Of a DNA stretch of 35,776 nucleotides, positions 4,384 through 24,300 are shown piece after piece. The position numbers were made by a program, and so were the translations under genes. Where the stretch lies: positions 1 through 35,776 of IMG/VR virus record IMGVR_UViG_3300025669_000117; one strand, written 5' to 3'. Source of the DNA: a virus. The notes under the pieces were generated by a model that was not told the DNA's origin, did no database searches, and saw only the letters and a list, made by a program, of their open reading frames with translations. Positions within the stretch are counted from its first letter, which is position 1. Every line of letters starts with the position of its first letter.

Positions 4384-5019
4384 ATGATAGAACTAAAGCA
4401 TATAGATTGCATGGAATACATGAATACATGCAAAGATAATCAATTCGACTTAGCTATTGTAGACCCACCTTATGGAATTAATATTTGCTATTCACCTGAC
4501 AAAAAACATATAGTTACTGATAGGAAAACTACAGATGGGAAATATTCCTCTTTAGCTAAAGAAAAATGGGATGTCAGACCAAAAAAAGAATACTTTGATG
4601 AACTATTTAGGATTTCTAAAAATCAAATTATTTGGGGAGGTAATTTTTTTGTAGAATATTTGCCACCTAAGCAATGCTGGGTTATATGGGATAAAATGAA
4701 TGGGAATAGCTCTTTTTCTGACTGTGAAATAGCCTTTACGTCATTTGATGTTGGTTTAAGAATTTTTAGAAAAACAATTGAAACTAAAAACAAGATACAT
4801 ATAACACAAAAACCAGTACTTCTATACGAATGGCTGTTATTACGATTTGCAAAAATTGGAGATAAAATTATTGACACACACCTCGGTAGTGGAAGTATTG
4901 CAATAGCTTGTCATAATAATATTTTTGATTTAATTGGATGCGAAATTAATAAAAAATATTATGACGATGCGTTAAAAAGATTTAATAACCATATTGCCCA
5001 AAAAAAAATTATCTTTTAA
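4384..5019 (+). CDS. DNA adenine/N4-cytosine methyltransferase, N6_N4_Mtase (PF01555) type
   Basis: 211 residues with the catalytic DPPY at 27-30, TQKP at 141-144 and a C-terminal SAM-binding motif DTHLGSGS at 164-171. The order catalytic motif then SAM motif is that of beta-class methyltransferases. DPPY fits N6-adenine methylation best, but N4-cytosine is not excluded. It is short for the family, with a small target-recognition region, so specificity may be relaxed or for a short site. No cognate restriction gene is nearby; self-protection against host restriction is the likely use. It is one of three methyltransferases in the window. Confidence 0.85.
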   Translation: MIELKHIDCMEYMNTCKDNQFDLAIVDPPYGINICYSPDKKHIVTDRKTTDGKYSSLAKEKWDVRPKKEYFDELFRISKNQIIWGGNFFVEYLPPKQCWVIWDKMNGNSSFSDCEIAFTSFDVGLRIFRKTIETKNKIHITQKPVLLYEWLLLRFAKIGDKIIDTHLGSGSIAIACHNNIFDLIGCEINKKYYDDALKRFNNHIAQKKIIF

Positions 5020-5392: not shown

Positions 5393-5435
5393 TAATGTTC
5401 AAACAAAAATGTCATATTAAAAACATTAAAAAAGT

Positions 5436-5520
5436 CTCGGATAAGATTATTATGCACGAAAGCAGTAATACGGACTCTTATGACATTCCGTTGAACAAAT
5501 CTAAGTCCGAGCATTTTTTT
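5436..5520 (+). promoter_or_regulatory. Structured leader with terminator-like stem before HNH
   Basis: CTCGGA (5436-5441) pairs with TCCGAG (5506-5511) and AGATT (5444-5448) with AATCT (5498-5502), around an inner hairpin ACGGA (5470-5474) / TCCGT (5487-5491). Seven T (5514-5520) follow and end directly at the ATG at 5521. ATAAGA (5441-5446) can alternatively pair with TCTTAT (5476-5481). This fits an attenuator, unless translation really starts at 5395 and the region is coding. Confidence 0.45.
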
Positions 5521-6036
5521 ATGGAGCATTACAAAAATTTATCATTAGAAAACATTGAAGGCGAAATTTGGAAAGAGGTAAAGGGATTTGAAGGACTTTA
5601 CAAAGTGTCAAATTTCTGCAGAATTAAAAGTTGTAAGAATGGCAGAAAACCTAAAATGCTAAAAATACGCATTACTTATCATGGATATTTGCAAACATCA
5701 TTAAGTAAAGACAATAAGTTAAGAACATACATTATGTCAAAATTAATGGGATTACATTTTATTAATAATCCGGAAAATAAGCCGTGTATAAATCATATAG
5801 ATGGGAACAAAGCAAATAACGAATTGTTAAATTTAGAATGGTGTACCCATGCAGAAAATATGCAACACGCATACAGAACAGGGTTACATAAAAGTAAATT
5901 GACAGAAAAACAAGTTATTTCAATAAGGAGCCATTTTGATGAAATTAATTACAATGAAATAGCTAATATGTTCGGGGTAGCAAGAAGAACAATATACGAC
6001 ATATTGCATAATATAACATGGAAACATTTATTATAA
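5521..6036 (+). CDS. NUMOD4/HNH homing endonuclease with C-terminal HTH
   Basis: Order of domains: NUMOD4-like EIWKEVKGFEGLYKVSNFCR, then an HNH_3-type nuclease (INHIDGNKANNELLNLEW, CTHAENMQHAYRTGL), then a helix-turn-helix (LTEKQVISIRSHFDE, MFGVARRTIYDILHN) for DNA recognition. The frame is open back to an ATG at 5395, adding 42 residues, but that ATG nearly abuts the -7 box of the promoter and the intervening DNA folds into a terminator-like leader. I therefore choose 5521; 5452 is another option. These are free-standing homing endonucleases that cut cognate sites and spread themselves. The closest relative in the window is the HNH inside the split terminase (22601). Confidence 0.8.
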   Translation: MEHYKNLSLENIEGEIWKEVKGFEGLYKVSNFCRIKSCKNGRKPKMLKIRITYHGYLQTSLSKDNKLRTYIMSKLMGLHFINNPENKPCINHIDGNKANNELLNLEWCTHAENMQHAYRTGLHKSKLTEKQVISIRSHFDEINYNEIANMFGVARRTIYDILHNITWKHLL

Positions 6037-7311: not shown

Positions 7312-7980
7312 ATGAGAATACTAAATTTATACGCTGGAATCGGTGGTAATAGAATGTTATGGGGAAATGAACACGAAATAACAGCAATAGAATATAATGA
7401 TAATATTGCTAAAGTTTACAAAGAGCAATACCCAAATGATACAGTAATAGTTACAGACGCACATCAATACTTACTTGACCATTACAAAGAATACGATTTT
7501 ATTTGGAGTTCGCCACCTTGTCCGACACATAGTAGAATGTGTTTTGCTAAAAAGGAAAAGCAATACATTGATTTTAAATTATACCAAGAAATTATATTAT
7601 TGAATAGTTGGTTTAAAGGTAAATATGTGGTTGAAAATGTAGTGCCTTATTATGGTTATTTAATTGAACCAAGTGTTATTTTAGGAAGGCATCCATTTTG
7701 GACAAACTTTAAAATTAAAGAAAAAGAGTTTACAAATATTGATATAAGCAGGTCTAAAAAAGAAGATTTATTAAAAGAACGAATGATTGACTGGTCTATT
7801 TTTGATTGCATAAAAGATGTCCCAGAAAATAGAAGTAAAGATAAAAGGTTTGAAAGAGGACAATTAGTTAGAAATATGGTAAACCCAAAGATTGGTGAGT
7901 ATGTTTTTGAAAAAGCGCGGGAAGAAAAAAGAAAAGAAAAAGAGATTGAAGCACCAACTTTGTTTAATGAACAGAATTAA
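7312..7980 (+). CDS. C5-cytosine DNA methyltransferase (DNA_methylase, PF00145)
   Basis: 222 residues. SAM-binding motif I is LYAGIGG (6-12); the catalytic Cys is C70 in SSPPCPTHSR; motif VI is ENV (108-110); a C-terminal region with RGQLVRNMVNP matches the RQVGNAVP-type motif X. At 222 residues it is shorter than typical Dcm enzymes, with a compact recognition domain, as in many phage enzymes. It methylates cytosine C5, presumably to evade host restriction. It lies alone between an attC-like site and a 53-bp hairpin element, so it looks like a one-gene cassette. A tail of Lys/Glu repeats ends the protein. Confidence 0.85.
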   Translation: MRILNLYAGIGGNRMLWGNEHEITAIEYNDNIAKVYKEQYPNDTVIVTDAHQYLLDHYKEYDFIWSSPPCPTHSRMCFAKKEKQYIDFKLYQEIILLNSWFKGKYVVENVVPYYGYLIEPSVILGRHPFWTNFKIKEKEFTNIDISRSKKEDLLKERMIDWSIFDCIKDVPENRSKDKRFERGQLVRNMVNPKIGEYVFEKAREEKRKEKEIEAPTLFNEQN

Positions 7981-15915: not shown

Positions 15916-16944
15916 ATGATAGTAAAAGAAAAAATAGGGAGGGGTTTTTTTGATTTAATAAAAGGAGACACTTTAATTGAAAACGAGCATATAAAAGATG
16001 GTAGTGTTGATTTAATATTGACAGATTTACCTTATGGCAATATGAATACTGACGGAGGGCGAAAGATTGGTATAAATGGATGGGATTTTGCTATTGAGCC
16101 TGAAAAAGTTTATTCGATTGCAAACCGTATTTTAAGGAAAAACGGTAAAATGATATTGTTTAGCCAAGAACCTTACACAAGCCAAATGATAACTAAAGCA
16201 ATACCGAATATACCGTTTAGTTATAGAGTAACTTGGGAAAAGGATAATTTTGCTGTTGCTTTAGGCGCTAATGTAAACATGGTAAGTTTTACAGAGGATG
16301 TTTTAATATTTAGTAAAAGCAGTGAAGCAATAGCTCCACACGATTACGAACTAAAACACCCGCAAAGAGACTACTTTAAAAAAGTATTTGAATTTATTGG
16401 AGGAACTAAGAAGAGTATAATTGAAAAGATAGGACAAAAAGCAGACCATACTTTTAGATTTAATAGTACTCAATACGGCTTATGTACTGAAAAAACATAT
16501 TTAGAAATTATTAAAGTTTTCAATATAAATAAGATGCAAGGCTTTAAAGGCTTTGATGTTTTAAAAATAGAAAATGACAACTTTAAAAAAGGGGAAGAAG
16601 CCGAAAGATTAGATTATTTAGAAAAACACAACCAAAAATACCCAAGCACCTTTAATTTGTGGGAATGTAAGAAGTATAAAAGCAATATATTAAAATACAA
16701 AAAGGATTACACAGGACACCACCCAACACAAAAGCCTGTATTATTATTAGAAGATTTAATAAAGACTTTTAGTAATGAAGGTGATTTAGTTGTTGATTTA
16801 ACTGCTGGCAGTTTTTCAACAGGAGTTGCTTGTGTTCACACTAATAGAAACTTTATAGGTATTGAGCAAGATGATAAATATTATGAAATTGGTCAAACAA
16901 GAATAAACAACGCTAAAAATAATTTGTTTCACAGTGGAAAATAG
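15916..16944 (+). CDS. DNA methyltransferase, beta class (N6-adenine or N4-cytosine)
   Basis: 342 residues. Catalytic DLPY at 37-40, TQKP at 271-274 and SAM motif DLTAGSFS at 294-301; order as in beta-class enzymes. DLPY is seen in N6-adenine and some N4-cytosine enzymes. A large middle region (about 110-260) is presumably the target-recognition domain. It is unrelated in detail to the shorter enzyme at 4384. First gene of the cassette-like block, between site 2 and a promoter for an HNH stub. It probably protects phage DNA from restriction. Confidence 0.85.
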   Translation: MIVKEKIGRGFFDLIKGDTLIENEHIKDGSVDLILTDLPYGNMNTDGGRKIGINGWDFAIEPEKVYSIANRILRKNGKMILFSQEPYTSQMITKAIPNIPFSYRVTWEKDNFAVALGANVNMVSFTEDVLIFSKSSEAIAPHDYELKHPQRDYFKKVFEFIGGTKKSIIEKIGQKADHTFRFNSTQYGLCTEKTYLEIIKVFNINKMQGFKGFDVLKIENDNFKKGEEAERLDYLEKHNQKYPSTFNLWECKKYKSNILKYKKDYTGHHPTQKPVLLLEDLIKTFSNEGDLVVDLTAGSFSTGVACVHTNRNFIGIEQDDKYYEIGQTRINNAKNNLFHSGK

Positions 16945-21349: not shown

Positions 21350-21706
21350 ATGAGTAAAAAAGGAAACCCATATAATTTGACTGATAAGCAAGCTAAATTC
21401 TGCAAAGAGTTTATTATTGACTTTAATGGAAAACAGGCAGCCATAAGGGCGGGATATTCAGAAAAAACAGCAAGTATGTTCATGTTAAAAGAAAGTAAAG
21501 TATATAAAAATATTGTCAATATAATATACGAATGCACGATAAATGATTTAGCTAAAATGAATAAGCTTTCTACTATAATTAAAAGAAATATCATAAACGG
21601 GGTTTATAATGATGAAAATGACTACCGGAAATTATATGAACACTTGGAAAATAAAATTAATAATTTAGAAAATAGTATTATTATAAATGCAGAAATTGAA
21701 AAATGA
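21350..21706 (+). CDS. Terminase small subunit, Terminase_2-like
   Basis: 118 residues. LTDKQAKFCKEFIIDFNGKQ followed by AAIRAGYSEKTA is the typical N-terminal HTH of Terminase_2 (PF03592), which recognises the packaging site. The C-terminal region is helical and Asn-rich, where family members form the oligomer. A second, different TerS-like gene follows at 21727, so one of the two may be the actual packaging subunit and the other a paralogue or regulator. Confidence 0.65.
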   Translation: MSKKGNPYNLTDKQAKFCKEFIIDFNGKQAAIRAGYSEKTASMFMLKESKVYKNIVNIIYECTINDLAKMNKLSTIIKRNIINGVYNDENDYRKLYEHLENKINNLENSIIINAEIEK

Positions 21707-21726
21707 AACCCATATAATTTAAAGTA

Positions 21727-22182
21727 ATGGCACGGCCAAATAAATACACAATAAAAGAAATAGCTGAAATTAAATTAAAGATAACAGCCGAGATTTCGGA
21801 GGGTAAAAGCCTAAAGTCAATACTTGACAAAAATAAGGATATGCCTTGCAGAGCGACTGTTTATACTTGGTTGAATGATGAACATAAAGATTATGACAAA
21901 GAGTTTTTAAACAATTACACGCGTAGCAAGGAGGATTCAGGCGATTTGGACGCTGAAAAAATAGAAGAAATTGCTGAAAAAGTCTTAAAGAAAAAATACG
22001 ACCCTGCAAGCGCAAGGGTGGCAATAGACGCTTACAAATGGACGGCAGGCAAAAAGAAGCCAAAGAAATACGGAGATAAGTTAGACGTTACGAGTGGGAA
22101 TGAAAAATTAGAGCAAAACATCACAATAATAACCTCAAATAAAAAAGACAAAGATAATTTAGAGAAATTTGCAGGAGAATAG
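21727..22182 (+). CDS. Second terminase small-subunit-like protein
   Basis: 151 residues. N-terminal HTH with KSLKSILDKNKDMPCRATVY then TWLNDEHKDYDKEFLNNYTR, and the conserved C-terminal SARVAIDAYKWTAGKKKPKK followed by YGDKLDV, a signature of Sf6/phage TerS proteins. It directly precedes TerL, the normal TerS position, so I regard it as the main small subunit. Confidence 0.75.
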   Translation: MARPNKYTIKEIAEIKLKITAEISEGKSLKSILDKNKDMPCRATVYTWLNDEHKDYDKEFLNNYTRSKEDSGDLDAEKIEEIAEKVLKKKYDPASARVAIDAYKWTAGKKKPKKYGDKLDVTSGNEKLEQNITIITSNKKDKDNLEKFAGE

Positions 22183-22244: not shown

Positions 22245-22589
22245 ATGATTACCACTTATTCTAAAACATTTTACAAATTAGTTGCCGAAACTGTAAGAAT
22301 ATCTATCCAACAAGGCGGAACATCTTGTTTTGGTCCTAATCAGTTAATACAAACAATTAATGGAAGTATTGAAATATCAAAGATTAAAACAGGAGAACAG
22401 GTCCAGACGTTCAATGAAGAAACAAAAGAGATAGAAACAAAGGTGGTCCAAGATATATTTAGGTTTGTGAACACTAAAAAAACATATAAGATTACATTGA
22501 AAAATGGCAGTACAATAATATGCACAGAGGACCATGAATTTTATGTCAAGGGGGTTTGGATTTCTCTAAAACATTTACTATCTTTGTAA
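22245..22589 (+). CDS. terL: Terminase large subunit N-terminal fragment fused to split-intein N-half (IntN)
   Basis: 114 residues. Residues 1-27 are the TerL N-extein, ending QQGGTS, the first part of the Walker A loop. Intein residues begin with the nucleophile C28 (CFGPNQLIQTINGSIEISKI), followed by block-B-type GSTIICTEDHEF with the catalytic T-x-x-H. The intein part is 87 residues and stops at TAA, with no C-terminal intein blocks; its length and the segment KTYKITLKNGSTIICTEDH are close to known phage split inteins such as gp41-1. The C-half is encoded separately at 23113. Trans-splicing would join residue S27 to S+1 of the C-half and rebuild GGTSSSKT. The frame differs from both downstream genes, so it is not one ORF with a single frameshift. 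Confidence 0.85.
   Translation: MITTYSKTFYKLVAETVRISIQQGGTSCFGPNQLIQTINGSIEISKIKTGEQVQTFNEETKEIETKVVQDIFRFVNTKKTYKITLKNGSTIICTEDHEFYVKGVWISLKHLLSL
22326..22586 (+). other. IntN coding segment of the split intein
   Basis: Encodes 87 residues from Cys1 to the end of the ORF. Blocks A and B are visible. The promoter of the following HNH gene lies within its last codons. Confidence 0.8.
22556..22586 (+). promoter_or_regulatory. Promoter of the intein-associated HNH gene, inside IntN
   Basis: TTG at 22556-22558, 20 bp, TATCTTTG at 22579-22586, ending at the last sense codon of IntN. Start codon of HNH at 22601 gives a short leader. Confidence 0.65.
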
Positions 22590-22600
22590 GAAAAAAGATT

Positions 22601-23140
22601 ATGGAAAATTGGAAAGCAATACCGAACTTCAGTACTTATGAAGCATCAGATTTAGGAAGGTTACGTTCATTGAATTATAAGCGTAGTAAAACAATAAGAG
22701 TATTAAAGCCTGCCAAGTCAAAAGACGGTTACATGAAAACAATGTTATTAGATGATAACGGTAAATATAGTAGTTGGACCGTACATAAATTTGTAGCATT
22801 AGCATTTTTTGGACCACGCAAGGAAGGACAAGAGATAAATCATATTGATTGTGATAAAACAAATAATAATATAAATAATTTAGAATACACAACTAGAAGT
22901 GAAAATATAAAACATGCTTATAGAAATAGTCTAATAACACCCAAAAGAGGCTCTTTGAATGGAAACTCAAAACTAACCGAACAGGATGTTGAAGAAATAA
23001 GAGAGCATGTTAGAAATTGTGTAAGTAGATATTATGGAAGAAAGAAACTTGCAGAAAAATACAATGTAAGTGAAGCCCATATTAAAGATATTGTAAATAG
23101 TAGACGTGGAATATGGAATTGTGTAAGTCCGACATATTAA
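22601..23140 (+). CDS. NUMOD4/HNH homing endonuclease between split-intein halves
   Basis: 179 residues. The frame opens at 22556, but the ATG at 22601 follows the promoter and gives the proper NUMOD4 start (MENWKAIPNFSTYEASDLGR). HNH_3 core: INHIDCDKTNNNINNLEY and TTRSENIKHAYRNSL; C-terminal HTH: LTEQDVEEIREHVRNC then KKLAEKYNVSEAHIKDIVNS. Same domain order as the HNH at 5521. Lying between the IntN and IntC genes, it should cut intein-less terL alleles and spread the whole insertion. Its 3' end overlaps the IntC gene by 28 bases. Confidence 0.85.
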   Translation: MENWKAIPNFSTYEASDLGRLRSLNYKRSKTIRVLKPAKSKDGYMKTMLLDDNGKYSSWTVHKFVALAFFGPRKEGQEINHIDCDKTNNNINNLEYTTRSENIKHAYRNSLITPKRGSLNGNSKLTEQDVEEIREHVRNCVSRYYGRKKLAEKYNVSEAHIKDIVNSRRGIWNCVSPTY

Positions 23141-23238
23141 AAATAGAGGAGGTGCAAGAGCCTTATGTTTATGATTTGTCAATAAAAGATAATCATAACT
23201 ACTTTATAGATTGTAATGGTCCTATATTGGTCCATAAC
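23113..23238 (+). other. IntC coding segment of the split intein
   Basis: 42 residues ending VHN, next codon Ser. ILKIEE and the final DCNGPILVHN resemble known phage split-intein C-halves. Confidence 0.8.
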
Positions 23239-24300
23239 AGTTCAAAGACTTTCAGCACAATCCAAGGTCTTATAATAATCGCAATTAAACAGCCAAAAGT
23301 ATTAATATCGGTCGTAGCCGAAAGCGTGCCACACTTAAAACGTGGAGTTATCAGGGACTTTTATACAATAATGGGAAATTCATTCAACAATAAGTCATAT
23401 AACAGAACAGATATGATTTATACATTTGATAATGGTTCAAGAATTGAGTTTTTTAGTGCTGATGACCATGCAAAATTAAGAGGCGCAAGGCGTGATTATC
23501 TTTTCATTAATGAGTGTAACAATGTAAACTATGAAGCATTTACACAATTAGAGATTAGAACAAAAAAGAGAATATTTTTAGATTTCAATCCTACTCATGA
23601 ATTTTGGGTCCACACAGAACTATTAAAAAGAGATGATATTTACTTTTTTACTTCAACTTATTTAGACAATGAGTTTTTAGAAGATGAAATTATTAAATCT
23701 ATTGAACACAGGAAAGGAAACACTAATTGGTGGAAAGTTTACGGACTTGGAGAGCTTGGCAATCTTGAGGGATTGGTGTTTCAAATAACTATTCGTGAAT
23801 TACCGGGAGAGGCAAAGTTAATAGGTTACGGTTTAGATTTTGGATATACTAATGATCCGACAGCATTTATCGGAGTCTATAAAATGAACAATGAGTTATA
23901 TTTAAAAGAATATATCTATCAAAGAGGCTTGACAAATCAAGATATTTGCAAAGATTTTGCAGATTTACAGATAAAAAAATATGATAGTATAATAGCAGAT
24001 AGTGCAGAGCCTAAAAGCATTGAAGAAATAAGGCGTAATAATTGGAACATAAAACCAGTAAGCAAAGGCAAAGACTCTATTAATTTCGGAATTGACATAA
24101 TGCTTCAGTATAAATTAAATGTTGATACAAATTCAACAAACTTAATCAAAGAATTTAGGAATTATCAATGGGAGGTAAGTAAGACTGGAGAGAAAACAGG
24201 AAAGCCAATTGATGACTTTAACCATGGCATTGATGCAATACGATATATTTGTATGATGAAATTAACAAATAAACGCAAAAGAGGGCTTGTCTCTTGGTAA
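23113..24300 (+). CDS. terL: Split-intein C-half (IntC) fused to terminase large subunit C-terminal part
   Basis: 395 residues. Residues 1-42 are IntC: DILKIEEVQEPYVYDLSIKD, then NHNYFI and ILVHN with the terminal His-Asn; +1 is Ser (SSKTFSTIQ). The remaining 353 residues are TerL: the second half of Walker A, the Walker B/catalytic carboxylate in YLFINECN, coupling motif RIFLDFNPT, and the RNase-H-like nuclease acids in GYGLDFGYTNDPT, IIADSAEP and DDFNHGIDAIRY. Without splicing this part lacks a complete P-loop and should be inactive. Spliced TerL would be about 380 residues, normal for Terminase_3-type proteins. It drives ATP-dependent DNA packaging into the prohead through the portal. Confidence 0.88.
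   Translation: MELCKSDILKIEEVQEPYVYDLSIKDNHNYFIDCNGPILVHNSSKTFSTIQGLIIIAIKQPKVLISVVAESVPHLKRGVIRDFYTIMGNSFNNKSYNRTDMIYTFDNGSRIEFFSADDHAKLRGARRDYLFINECNNVNYEAFTQLEIRTKKRIFLDFNPTHEFWVHTELLKRDDIYFFTSTYLDNEFLEDEIIKSIEHRKGNTNWWKVYGLGELGNLEGLVFQITIRELPGEAKLIGYGLDFGYTNDPTAFIGVYKMNNELYLKEYIYQRGLTNQDICKDFADLQIKKYDSIIADSAEPKSIEEIRRNNWNIKPVSKGKDSINFGIDIMLQYKLNVDTNSTNLIKEFRNYQWEVSKTGEKTGKPIDDFNHGIDAIRYICMMKLTNKRKRGLVSW

What the first reader, a model, noticed from the sequence alone, without database searches (positions are those of the whole stretch)
22245..24300. Terminase large subunit fractured by a natural split intein with a free-standing HNH gene between the halves
Seen: an ORF ending in an intein N-half (Cys1, TEDH block B) directly after the first half of the TerL P-loop (QQGGTS), a NUMOD4/HNH gene in another frame, and a third-frame ORF starting with an intein C-half (VHN, +1 Ser) followed by the rest of TerL (SSKTFSTIQ). 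All three reading frames differ, so one frameshift cannot restore a contiguous intein. Known: split inteins in fractured genes with an intervening homing endonuclease exist in phage and metagenomic sequences. Inference: this is such a case in an essential packaging ATPase, so packaging depends on protein trans-splicing. I am not aware of this arrangement with a NUMOD4-HNH in TerL.
Basis: partly seen in the sequence, partly recalled or inferred. Interest (0 to 1): 0.92.

Follow-up and report, generated by a model that had tools for sequence, protein, structure and literature searches.

The report
Packaging motor gene split by intein
In this uncultured phage the gene for the DNA-packaging motor is broken in two at its ATP-binding loop, each piece carries half of a self-splicing intein that should stitch the protein back together, and a homing endonuclease gene sits in the break; relatives show the same break in at least ten other lineages, plus unbroken inteins that hide the endonuclease gene in another reading frame, which makes the origin of natural split inteins testable.

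Summary
ORF 22245-22589 is the TerL N-extein (…QQGGTS) plus an intein N-half (Cys1, TxxH). A NUMOD4-HNH gene follows (22601-23140). ORF 23113-24300 is an intein C-half (Asp, VHN, +1 Ser) plus the rest of TerL. Joining the exteins, or the intein halves, raises the family scores. Three other assemblies carry the locus identically. Ten divergent viral lineages carry the same split intein + HNH at the same Walker A site. A contiguous homologue (L356) is predicted to fold as an intein, nearest gp41-1. Cassette and TerL identities are decoupled, which indicates homing. Trans-splicing is inferred, not shown.

The kind is known: fractured genes with split inteins, a PolB split intein with HNH in phage MIJ3, P-loop inteins in TerL. 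New here is the context. Related TerL inteins are contiguous, with the HNH gene nested out of frame in a disordered linker (0 stops where 12-20 are expected). These look like intermediates on the route to a split intein.

Noticed nearby: about 37 distinct 36-44-nt hairpin inserts in TerL Walker A of other phages. They resemble T4 gene 60 ribosomal-bypass elements and are enriched for an adjacent HNH gene (15/44 versus 2/85).

The parts
21727..22182 (+). terminase small subunit (Sf6-like) directly upstream
   Evidence: PF20901 85.9 bits, phrog_1482
22245..22325 (+). TerL N-extein (27 aa), ending in the first part of Walker A, QQGGTS
   Evidence: joined to the C-extein it extends PF04466 and TIGR01547 to their N-termini; uninterrupted relatives read QGGTS|SSKT
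22326..22589 (+). intein N-half (87 aa, Cys1, block B TEDH) and its stop codon
   Evidence: TIGR01445 above cut-off; aligned with seven homologues, C1, F2, T67, H70 invariant
22601..23140 (+). free-standing NUMOD4-HNH homing endonuclease (179 aa), frame +2 relative to IntN
   Evidence: PF07463 and PF13392 above cut-offs; 58-67% identical to HNHs at the TerL P-loop of L103, L104, L105
23113..23238 (+). intein C-half (42 aa; block F Asp, block G VHN); its ATG overlaps the 3' end of the HNH gene by 28 nt
   Evidence: TIGR01443 above cut-off; aligned with seven homologues, D, V, H, N and +1 Ser invariant; junction table
23239..24300 (+). TerL C-extein, from +1 Ser (SSKTFSTIQ) through the RNase H-like nuclease domain
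   Evidence: PF04466, PF17288, TIGR01547

Best explanation
The terminase large subunit gene is fractured at its Walker A loop by a class 1 split intein. Two polypeptides are made from one gene cluster: N-extein-IntN and IntC-C-extein. The HNH gene between them is translated on its own, probably by coupling, because its stop codon overlaps the start of the IntC ORF. IntN and IntC associate into a Hint fold, Cys1 and +1 Ser carry out trans-splicing, and the ligated product (380 aa) regains the QGGTSSSKT P-loop needed for ATP-driven packaging. The HNH nuclease is a homing endonuclease expected to cut intein-less TerL alleles at the P-loop, so that repair copies the intein-HNH cassette. Shown: the gene anatomy, family matches, conservation of all splicing residues, recurrence at one site, and decoupled cassette/TerL histories. 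Inferred: trans-splicing, the HNH target, coupled translation. The most plausible origin is fracture of a contiguous TerL intein that carried the HNH gene nested out of frame in its linker; that order is inferred, because the trees do not resolve it.
For: Intein halves and exteins score higher when joined. All class 1 splicing residues are invariant across split and contiguous relatives. The locus is identical in three other assemblies. The same split intein + HNH occurs at the TerL P-loop in L103, L104, L176, L177, L338, L339, L350, L351, L352 and L355. HNH 3' end and IntC ATG overlap by 8, 16 or 28 nt in 10 of 11 split loci. The contiguous relative L356 (IntN 79.5% identical to split L104) is predicted with pLDDT 92.9 and matches gp41-1 intein best, E 3.9e-8. 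Pairwise dN is 0.12-0.44 with dS high or saturated for both intein halves and HNH. Cassette identity exceeds TerL identity in L176/L177 (0.70-0.72 versus 0.47) and falls below it in L177/L352 (IntN 0.62 versus TerL 0.83), so the histories are decoupled. Dual-coding contiguous relatives L178, L256, L257, L359 have no stop in the intein frame across the HNH gene where 12.6-19.2 are expected.
Against: No direct evidence of splicing or of HNH cleavage. The window's IntN is slightly shorter at its C-end than contiguous homologues. IntC frame relative to IntN in the split loci (0 in 4 of 11) is what chance gives, so frame alone does not prove descent from a dual-coding ancestor. Intein and HNH trees are weakly resolved and mix split and dual-coding forms. 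One mini-intein (L356) lies inside a split clade, so the split state may be reversible.
Confidence: 0.86

Rival explanations
1. The three ORFs are a decayed contiguous intein with an inserted HNH gene; TerL is a pseudogene or a functional copy lies elsewhere.
For: Stops and frame changes are present. The record is a linear 35.8-kb fragment, so a second copy cannot be excluded.
Against: All splicing and TerL residues are intact. Only one TerL place was found in this record. The same open structure persists in ten divergent lineages with low dN and high dS.
Confidence: 0.05
2. Joining happens at the RNA or decoding level (self-splicing intron, ribosomal bypass or frameshift), giving a contiguous intein or TerL without trans-splicing.
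For: Bypass-like hairpin inserts exist at the same P-loop in other phages. HNH genes often sit in group I introns.
Against: No Rfam intron or other RNA family in the window. The IntN stop and HNH start are 11 nt apart and HNH and IntC overlap, leaving no room for an intron core. Complete intein halves would be superfluous.
Confidence: 0.05
3. Assembly or sequencing artefact.
For: Metagenomic origin; no reads available here.
Against: Three other assemblies at 99.98-100% identity over 6.6-9.1 kb, and independent divergent lineages with the same architecture.
Confidence: 0.01
4. The HNH gene entered an already split intein rather than causing the split (a rival on origin only; it leaves the trans-splicing reading intact).
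For: L358 has a split intein at this site with no HNH but a 62-codon CxxC ORF between the halves.
Against: In the dual-coding contiguous inteins the HNH start lies at the same place and in the same +1 frame as in 9 of 11 split loci. The mini-intein/split pair L356/L104 differs by the HNH segment at that place.
Confidence: 0.25

Closest known systems
Fractured genes with split inteins and an intervening endonuclease (Dassa et al. 2009; gp41-1, NrdJ-1, IMPDH-1)
   Same: Typical split after the N-terminal ~88 residues, a free-standing endonuclease between the halves, phage/metagenomic source; gp41-1 is among the nearest solved inteins by sequence (IntN) and the nearest by predicted fold (L356)
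   Different: From memory, the endonuclease there is a Vsr-like family; here it is NUMOD4-HNH, and the host gene is TerL at Walker A. The paper itself is not held
Phage MIJ3 DNA polymerase B split intein with intervening HNH (PMC6892783)
   Same: Split intein halves in two ORFs with an HNH endonuclease ORF between
   Different: Host protein PolB; reported in one phage
AceL-TerL / GOS-TerL split inteins (PMC11766414)
   Same: Natural split inteins in phage terminase large subunits
   Different: Atypical split (IntN 25 or 37 aa) and +1 Cys; here IntN is 87 aa with +1 Ser
Mycobacteriophage TerL1-a/-b P-loop inteins (PMC5050341)
   Same: Inteins in the Walker A motif of TerL
   Different: Not described as split in the passages read
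ShiLan domain, a hidden out-of-frame HNH in a phage methylase (PMC11855218)
   Same: HNH gene in another frame of an uninterrupted insert, as in relatives L178, L256, L257, L359
   Different: ShiLan has no self-splicing domain; here the nested HNH lies inside an intein, and in the window the intein is split

Membership tests
Class 1 intein (Hint superfamily) | Cys/Ser1 nucleophile, block B TxxH, block F Asp, block G His-Asn, +1 Cys/Ser/Thr | tested here: met
   C1, T67, H70, D21 of IntC, H41, N42, S43 invariant in eight sequences
Class 1 intein (Hint superfamily) | curated profile match over both halves | tested here: met
   TIGR01445 and TIGR01443 above cut-offs; joined halves above PF14890 cut-off
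Class 1 intein (Hint superfamily) | Hint fold | tested here: met
   shown for the contiguous homologue L356, not for the window halves themselves
Split intein / fractured gene | N- and C-parts with exteins on separate ORFs, endonuclease between | tested here: met
Split intein / fractured gene | protein trans-splicing activity | not testable with these tools
   needs co-expression
NUMOD4-HNH homing endonuclease | NUMOD4 and HNH_3 domains with the HNH residues | tested here: met
   PF07463, PF13392 above cut-offs; H62, N80, H81, N89, N102 invariant in five homologues
NUMOD4-HNH homing endonuclease | cleaves the intein-less TerL allele and drives homing | not testable with these tools
   only indirect: recurrence at one site and decoupled cassette/TerL identity
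Terminase large subunit (Terminase_3 / PBSX type) | ATPase and nuclease domains in the joined exteins | tested here: met
   PF04466 positions 3-201 and PF17288; TIGR01547 98.9 bits, just below its 105.05 equivalog cut-off
AceL-/GOS-TerL atypical split inteins | split after 25-37 residues and +1 Cys | tested here: not met
   IntN is 87 aa and +1 is Ser

The most novel reading that the evidence does not exclude
Natural split inteins at the TerL P-loop arise through a dual-coding stage. A NUMOD4-HNH gene lies out of frame inside a contiguous intein linker and brings an IntC start codon at its 3' end; stops then accumulate in the linker frame and the intein becomes split. Other phages cope with the same HNH-targeted P-loop by a ribosomal bypass element instead of an intein, so one endonuclease-targeted site has been made tolerable by two unrelated decoding or processing tricks.
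Probability: 0.4. Interest if true: 0.9.

Novelty: new variant of a known kind. Interest (0 to 1): 0.74.

Why it matters
How natural split inteins arise is an open question. Here one insertion site in one protein family shows a contiguous mini-intein, a contiguous intein with the endonuclease gene nested in another frame, a split intein with the endonuclease between the halves, and a split intein without it, so the steps can be rebuilt and tested at the bench. It also puts an essential packaging ATPase under obligatory trans-splicing, and supplies about ten new candidate split-intein pairs with a typical split for protein engineering.

Tried and rejected
Rfam on the whole window: no RNA family at gathering thresholds, so no intron support. 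Phage database tblastn: TerL relatives only up to 44% and no close record with the IntN, so no cultured relative. An in-frame HNH domain split by two frameshifts was considered for the window; rejected because the HNH has its own start and complete C-terminus, and relatives show the HNH out of frame inside one open intein ORF. Intein and HNH trees to order the states: too weakly resolved. IntC frame as proof of descent from dual coding: dropped, since 4 of 11 is the chance rate. Literature on out-of-frame endonucleases inside inteins: none held; one preprint cited by PMC11855218 (doi 10.1101/2025.01.02.630785) may cover it but is not held.

Full report
Observation. The window (an IMG/VR virus record of 35,776 bases, linear) holds three consecutive ORFs in three frames. 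22245-22589 encodes MITTYSKTFYKLVAETVRISIQQGGTS followed by an 87-residue intein N-half beginning CFGPNQ and containing TEDH. 22601-23140 encodes a 179-residue NUMOD4-HNH protein. 23113-24300 encodes a 42-residue intein C-half ending PILVHN, then SSKTFSTIQ and the rest of TerL. Family searches agree: TIGR01445 and TIGR01443 above their cut-offs, NUMOD4 and HNH_3 above theirs, and Terminase_3, Terminase_3C and PBSX TerL.

Are the pieces parts of one intein and one TerL? Joined in a query, the intein halves rise to 52.1 bits on PF14890 (cut-off 35.8), whereas each half alone was below it. The joined exteins extend PF04466 from profile position 66 back to 3, and TIGR01547 from 88.4 to 98.9 bits. 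In one collection scan 78 of the 80 nearest TerLs read straight across the site as QGGTS|SSKT, QGGTS|AGKT or close variants, and L005 reads CGGSS|SSKT, so the insertion site is the Walker A loop.

Not an artefact. Three other IMG/VR assemblies carry the locus at 99.98-100% identity over 6.6-9.1 kb.

Recurrence. Scans with the TerL, the HNH and an IntN alignment, plus one scan of bacterial and archaeal genomes, recovered the same architecture at the same P-loop in L103, L104, L176, L177 (with near-identical contigs L342-L349), L338, L339, L350, L351, L352 and L355. In 10 of 11 split loci, the window included, the 3' end of the HNH gene and the IntC ATG overlap by 8, 16 or 28 nt, which suggests translational coupling. 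Splicing residues are invariant. Pairwise dN is low while dS is high or saturated for IntN, IntC and HNH, and cassette and TerL identities are decoupled in both directions (L176/L177: 0.70-0.72 versus 0.47; L177/L352: IntN 0.62 versus TerL 0.83), as expected for a homing cassette.

Fold. The window halves cannot be folded as one chain with the tool. The contiguous relative L356 (intein 131 aa; IntN 79.5% identical to the split intein L104) was folded with the other halves as alignment rows: mean pLDDT 92.9, best PDB match the gp41-1 split intein (6qaz, E 3.9e-8), then DnaB and NpuDnaE inteins.

A hidden-gene stage. L178, L256, L257 and L359/L360/L361 carry the TerL P-loop intein in one uninterrupted ORF, with the HNH gene nested in the +1 frame of the linker. 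In these loci the intein frame has 0 stops through the HNH gene where synonymous shuffling predicts 12.6-19.2 (no open shuffle in 3,000), and the third frame has 19-24 stops. In the window the intein frame has 21 stops (expected 15.1), so it is no longer kept open. Between these loci the HNH reading is conserved (31-56% identity) while the linker reading is much less so. In the model of the L256 intein both Hint halves have pLDDT above 90 and much of the linker is below 50, with low-confidence helices. Other TerL inteins, in the C-terminal part of TerL (L174, L377, L381, L383/L384, second intein of L360, and L391/L393), also nest a different HNH out of frame (P(open) from below 0.0004 to 0.009). 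L389 is a conventional in-frame case. A split intein without HNH is L358, with a 62-codon CxxC ORF between the halves. The mini-intein/split pair L356/L104 places the HNH between KCWNKR and ESY of the intein, at the usual endonuclease loop. The state order is not resolved by trees; nested-then-split is the easier direction because it only needs stops once IntC has a start codon.

Known background. Contiguous P-loop inteins in TerL (PMC5050341); atypical TerL split inteins with +1 Cys (PMC11766414); a PolB split intein with an HNH between the halves in phage MIJ3 (PMC6892783); an out-of-frame HNH in a non-intein methylase insert (PMC11855218). The window is therefore a new variant of a known kind. 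No held paper that the searches found describes an HNH nested out of frame in an intein as a precursor of a split intein; a preprint that may touch on it is not held.

Passing discovery. Fifteen TerL relatives carry a 39-nt insert with stops in Walker A, QGGTS|…|AGKT. Pattern scans found about 37 distinct inserts of 36, 38, 39, 40, 42, 43 and 44 nt, almost all with a strong C4-5/G4-5 hairpin whose stem covaries, flanked by matched Ser or Ala codons; L018 has a related 36-nt insert between GGA codons. Lengths that are not multiples of three rule out plain stop-codon readthrough. An HNH ORF ends directly at the TerL start in 15 of 44 insert loci versus 2 of 85 uninterrupted ones (Fisher p 1.2e-6); related contigs inflate this somewhat. 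This resembles the T4 gene 60 bypass, whose 50-nt insert lies next to a homing endonuclease; the review read gives T4 gene 60 and Magnusiomyces mitochondria as the examples, with a candidate in the Hau3 terminase (PMC5009743). Bypass itself is inferred.

Verdict. New variant of a known kind, interest 0.74.

Noticed in passing
L026-L029, L031-L035, L037, L038, L040-L042, L046, L018:3950-4010, and L397-L462: About 37 distinct 36-44-nt inserts in the TerL Walker A codons of other phages, with stops or frameshifts, a covarying C/G-rich hairpin and matched take-off/landing codons: candidate T4 gene 60-like ribosomal bypass elements, enriched for an HNH gene directly upstream (15/44 versus 2/85, p 1.2e-6).
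   Followed up: partly
L174, L377, L381, L383/L384, L360:5718-6701, L391/L393: Inteins in the C-terminal part of TerL, in one open ORF with a different HNH gene nested in another frame.
   Followed up: partly
L181:1221-3038: A truncated TerL N-terminus (NQGGSGG) is followed by a NUMOD4-HNH gene and then a complete TerL with its own N-terminus: an HNH insertion that seems to have re-supplied the 5' end of the gene.
   Followed up: partly
L105:2989-4669: HNH 58% identical to the window's lies directly upstream of TerL, whose Walker A carries a 5-nt out-of-frame insert (CGG-CTCGT-AGC) at the intein site, with no intein.
   Followed up: no
L358:3785-3985: Split TerL intein without HNH; a small CxxC ORF occupies the gap.
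   Followed up: no
L256:3750-3812: A second intein start (DAFNHCLVESTLVATSRGDIPIKDV) near the end of the same TerL.
   Followed up: no
window 5395-6036: A second NUMOD4-HNH gene with a 56-residue N-terminal extension.
   Followed up: no
window 21350-22182: Two terminase small-subunit-like genes of different families in tandem (Terminase_2 and Sf6-like).
   Followed up: no
window 4384-5019, 7312-7980, 15916-16944: Three DNA methyltransferases (two N6/N4, one C5) in one 35.8-kb phage record.
   Followed up: no
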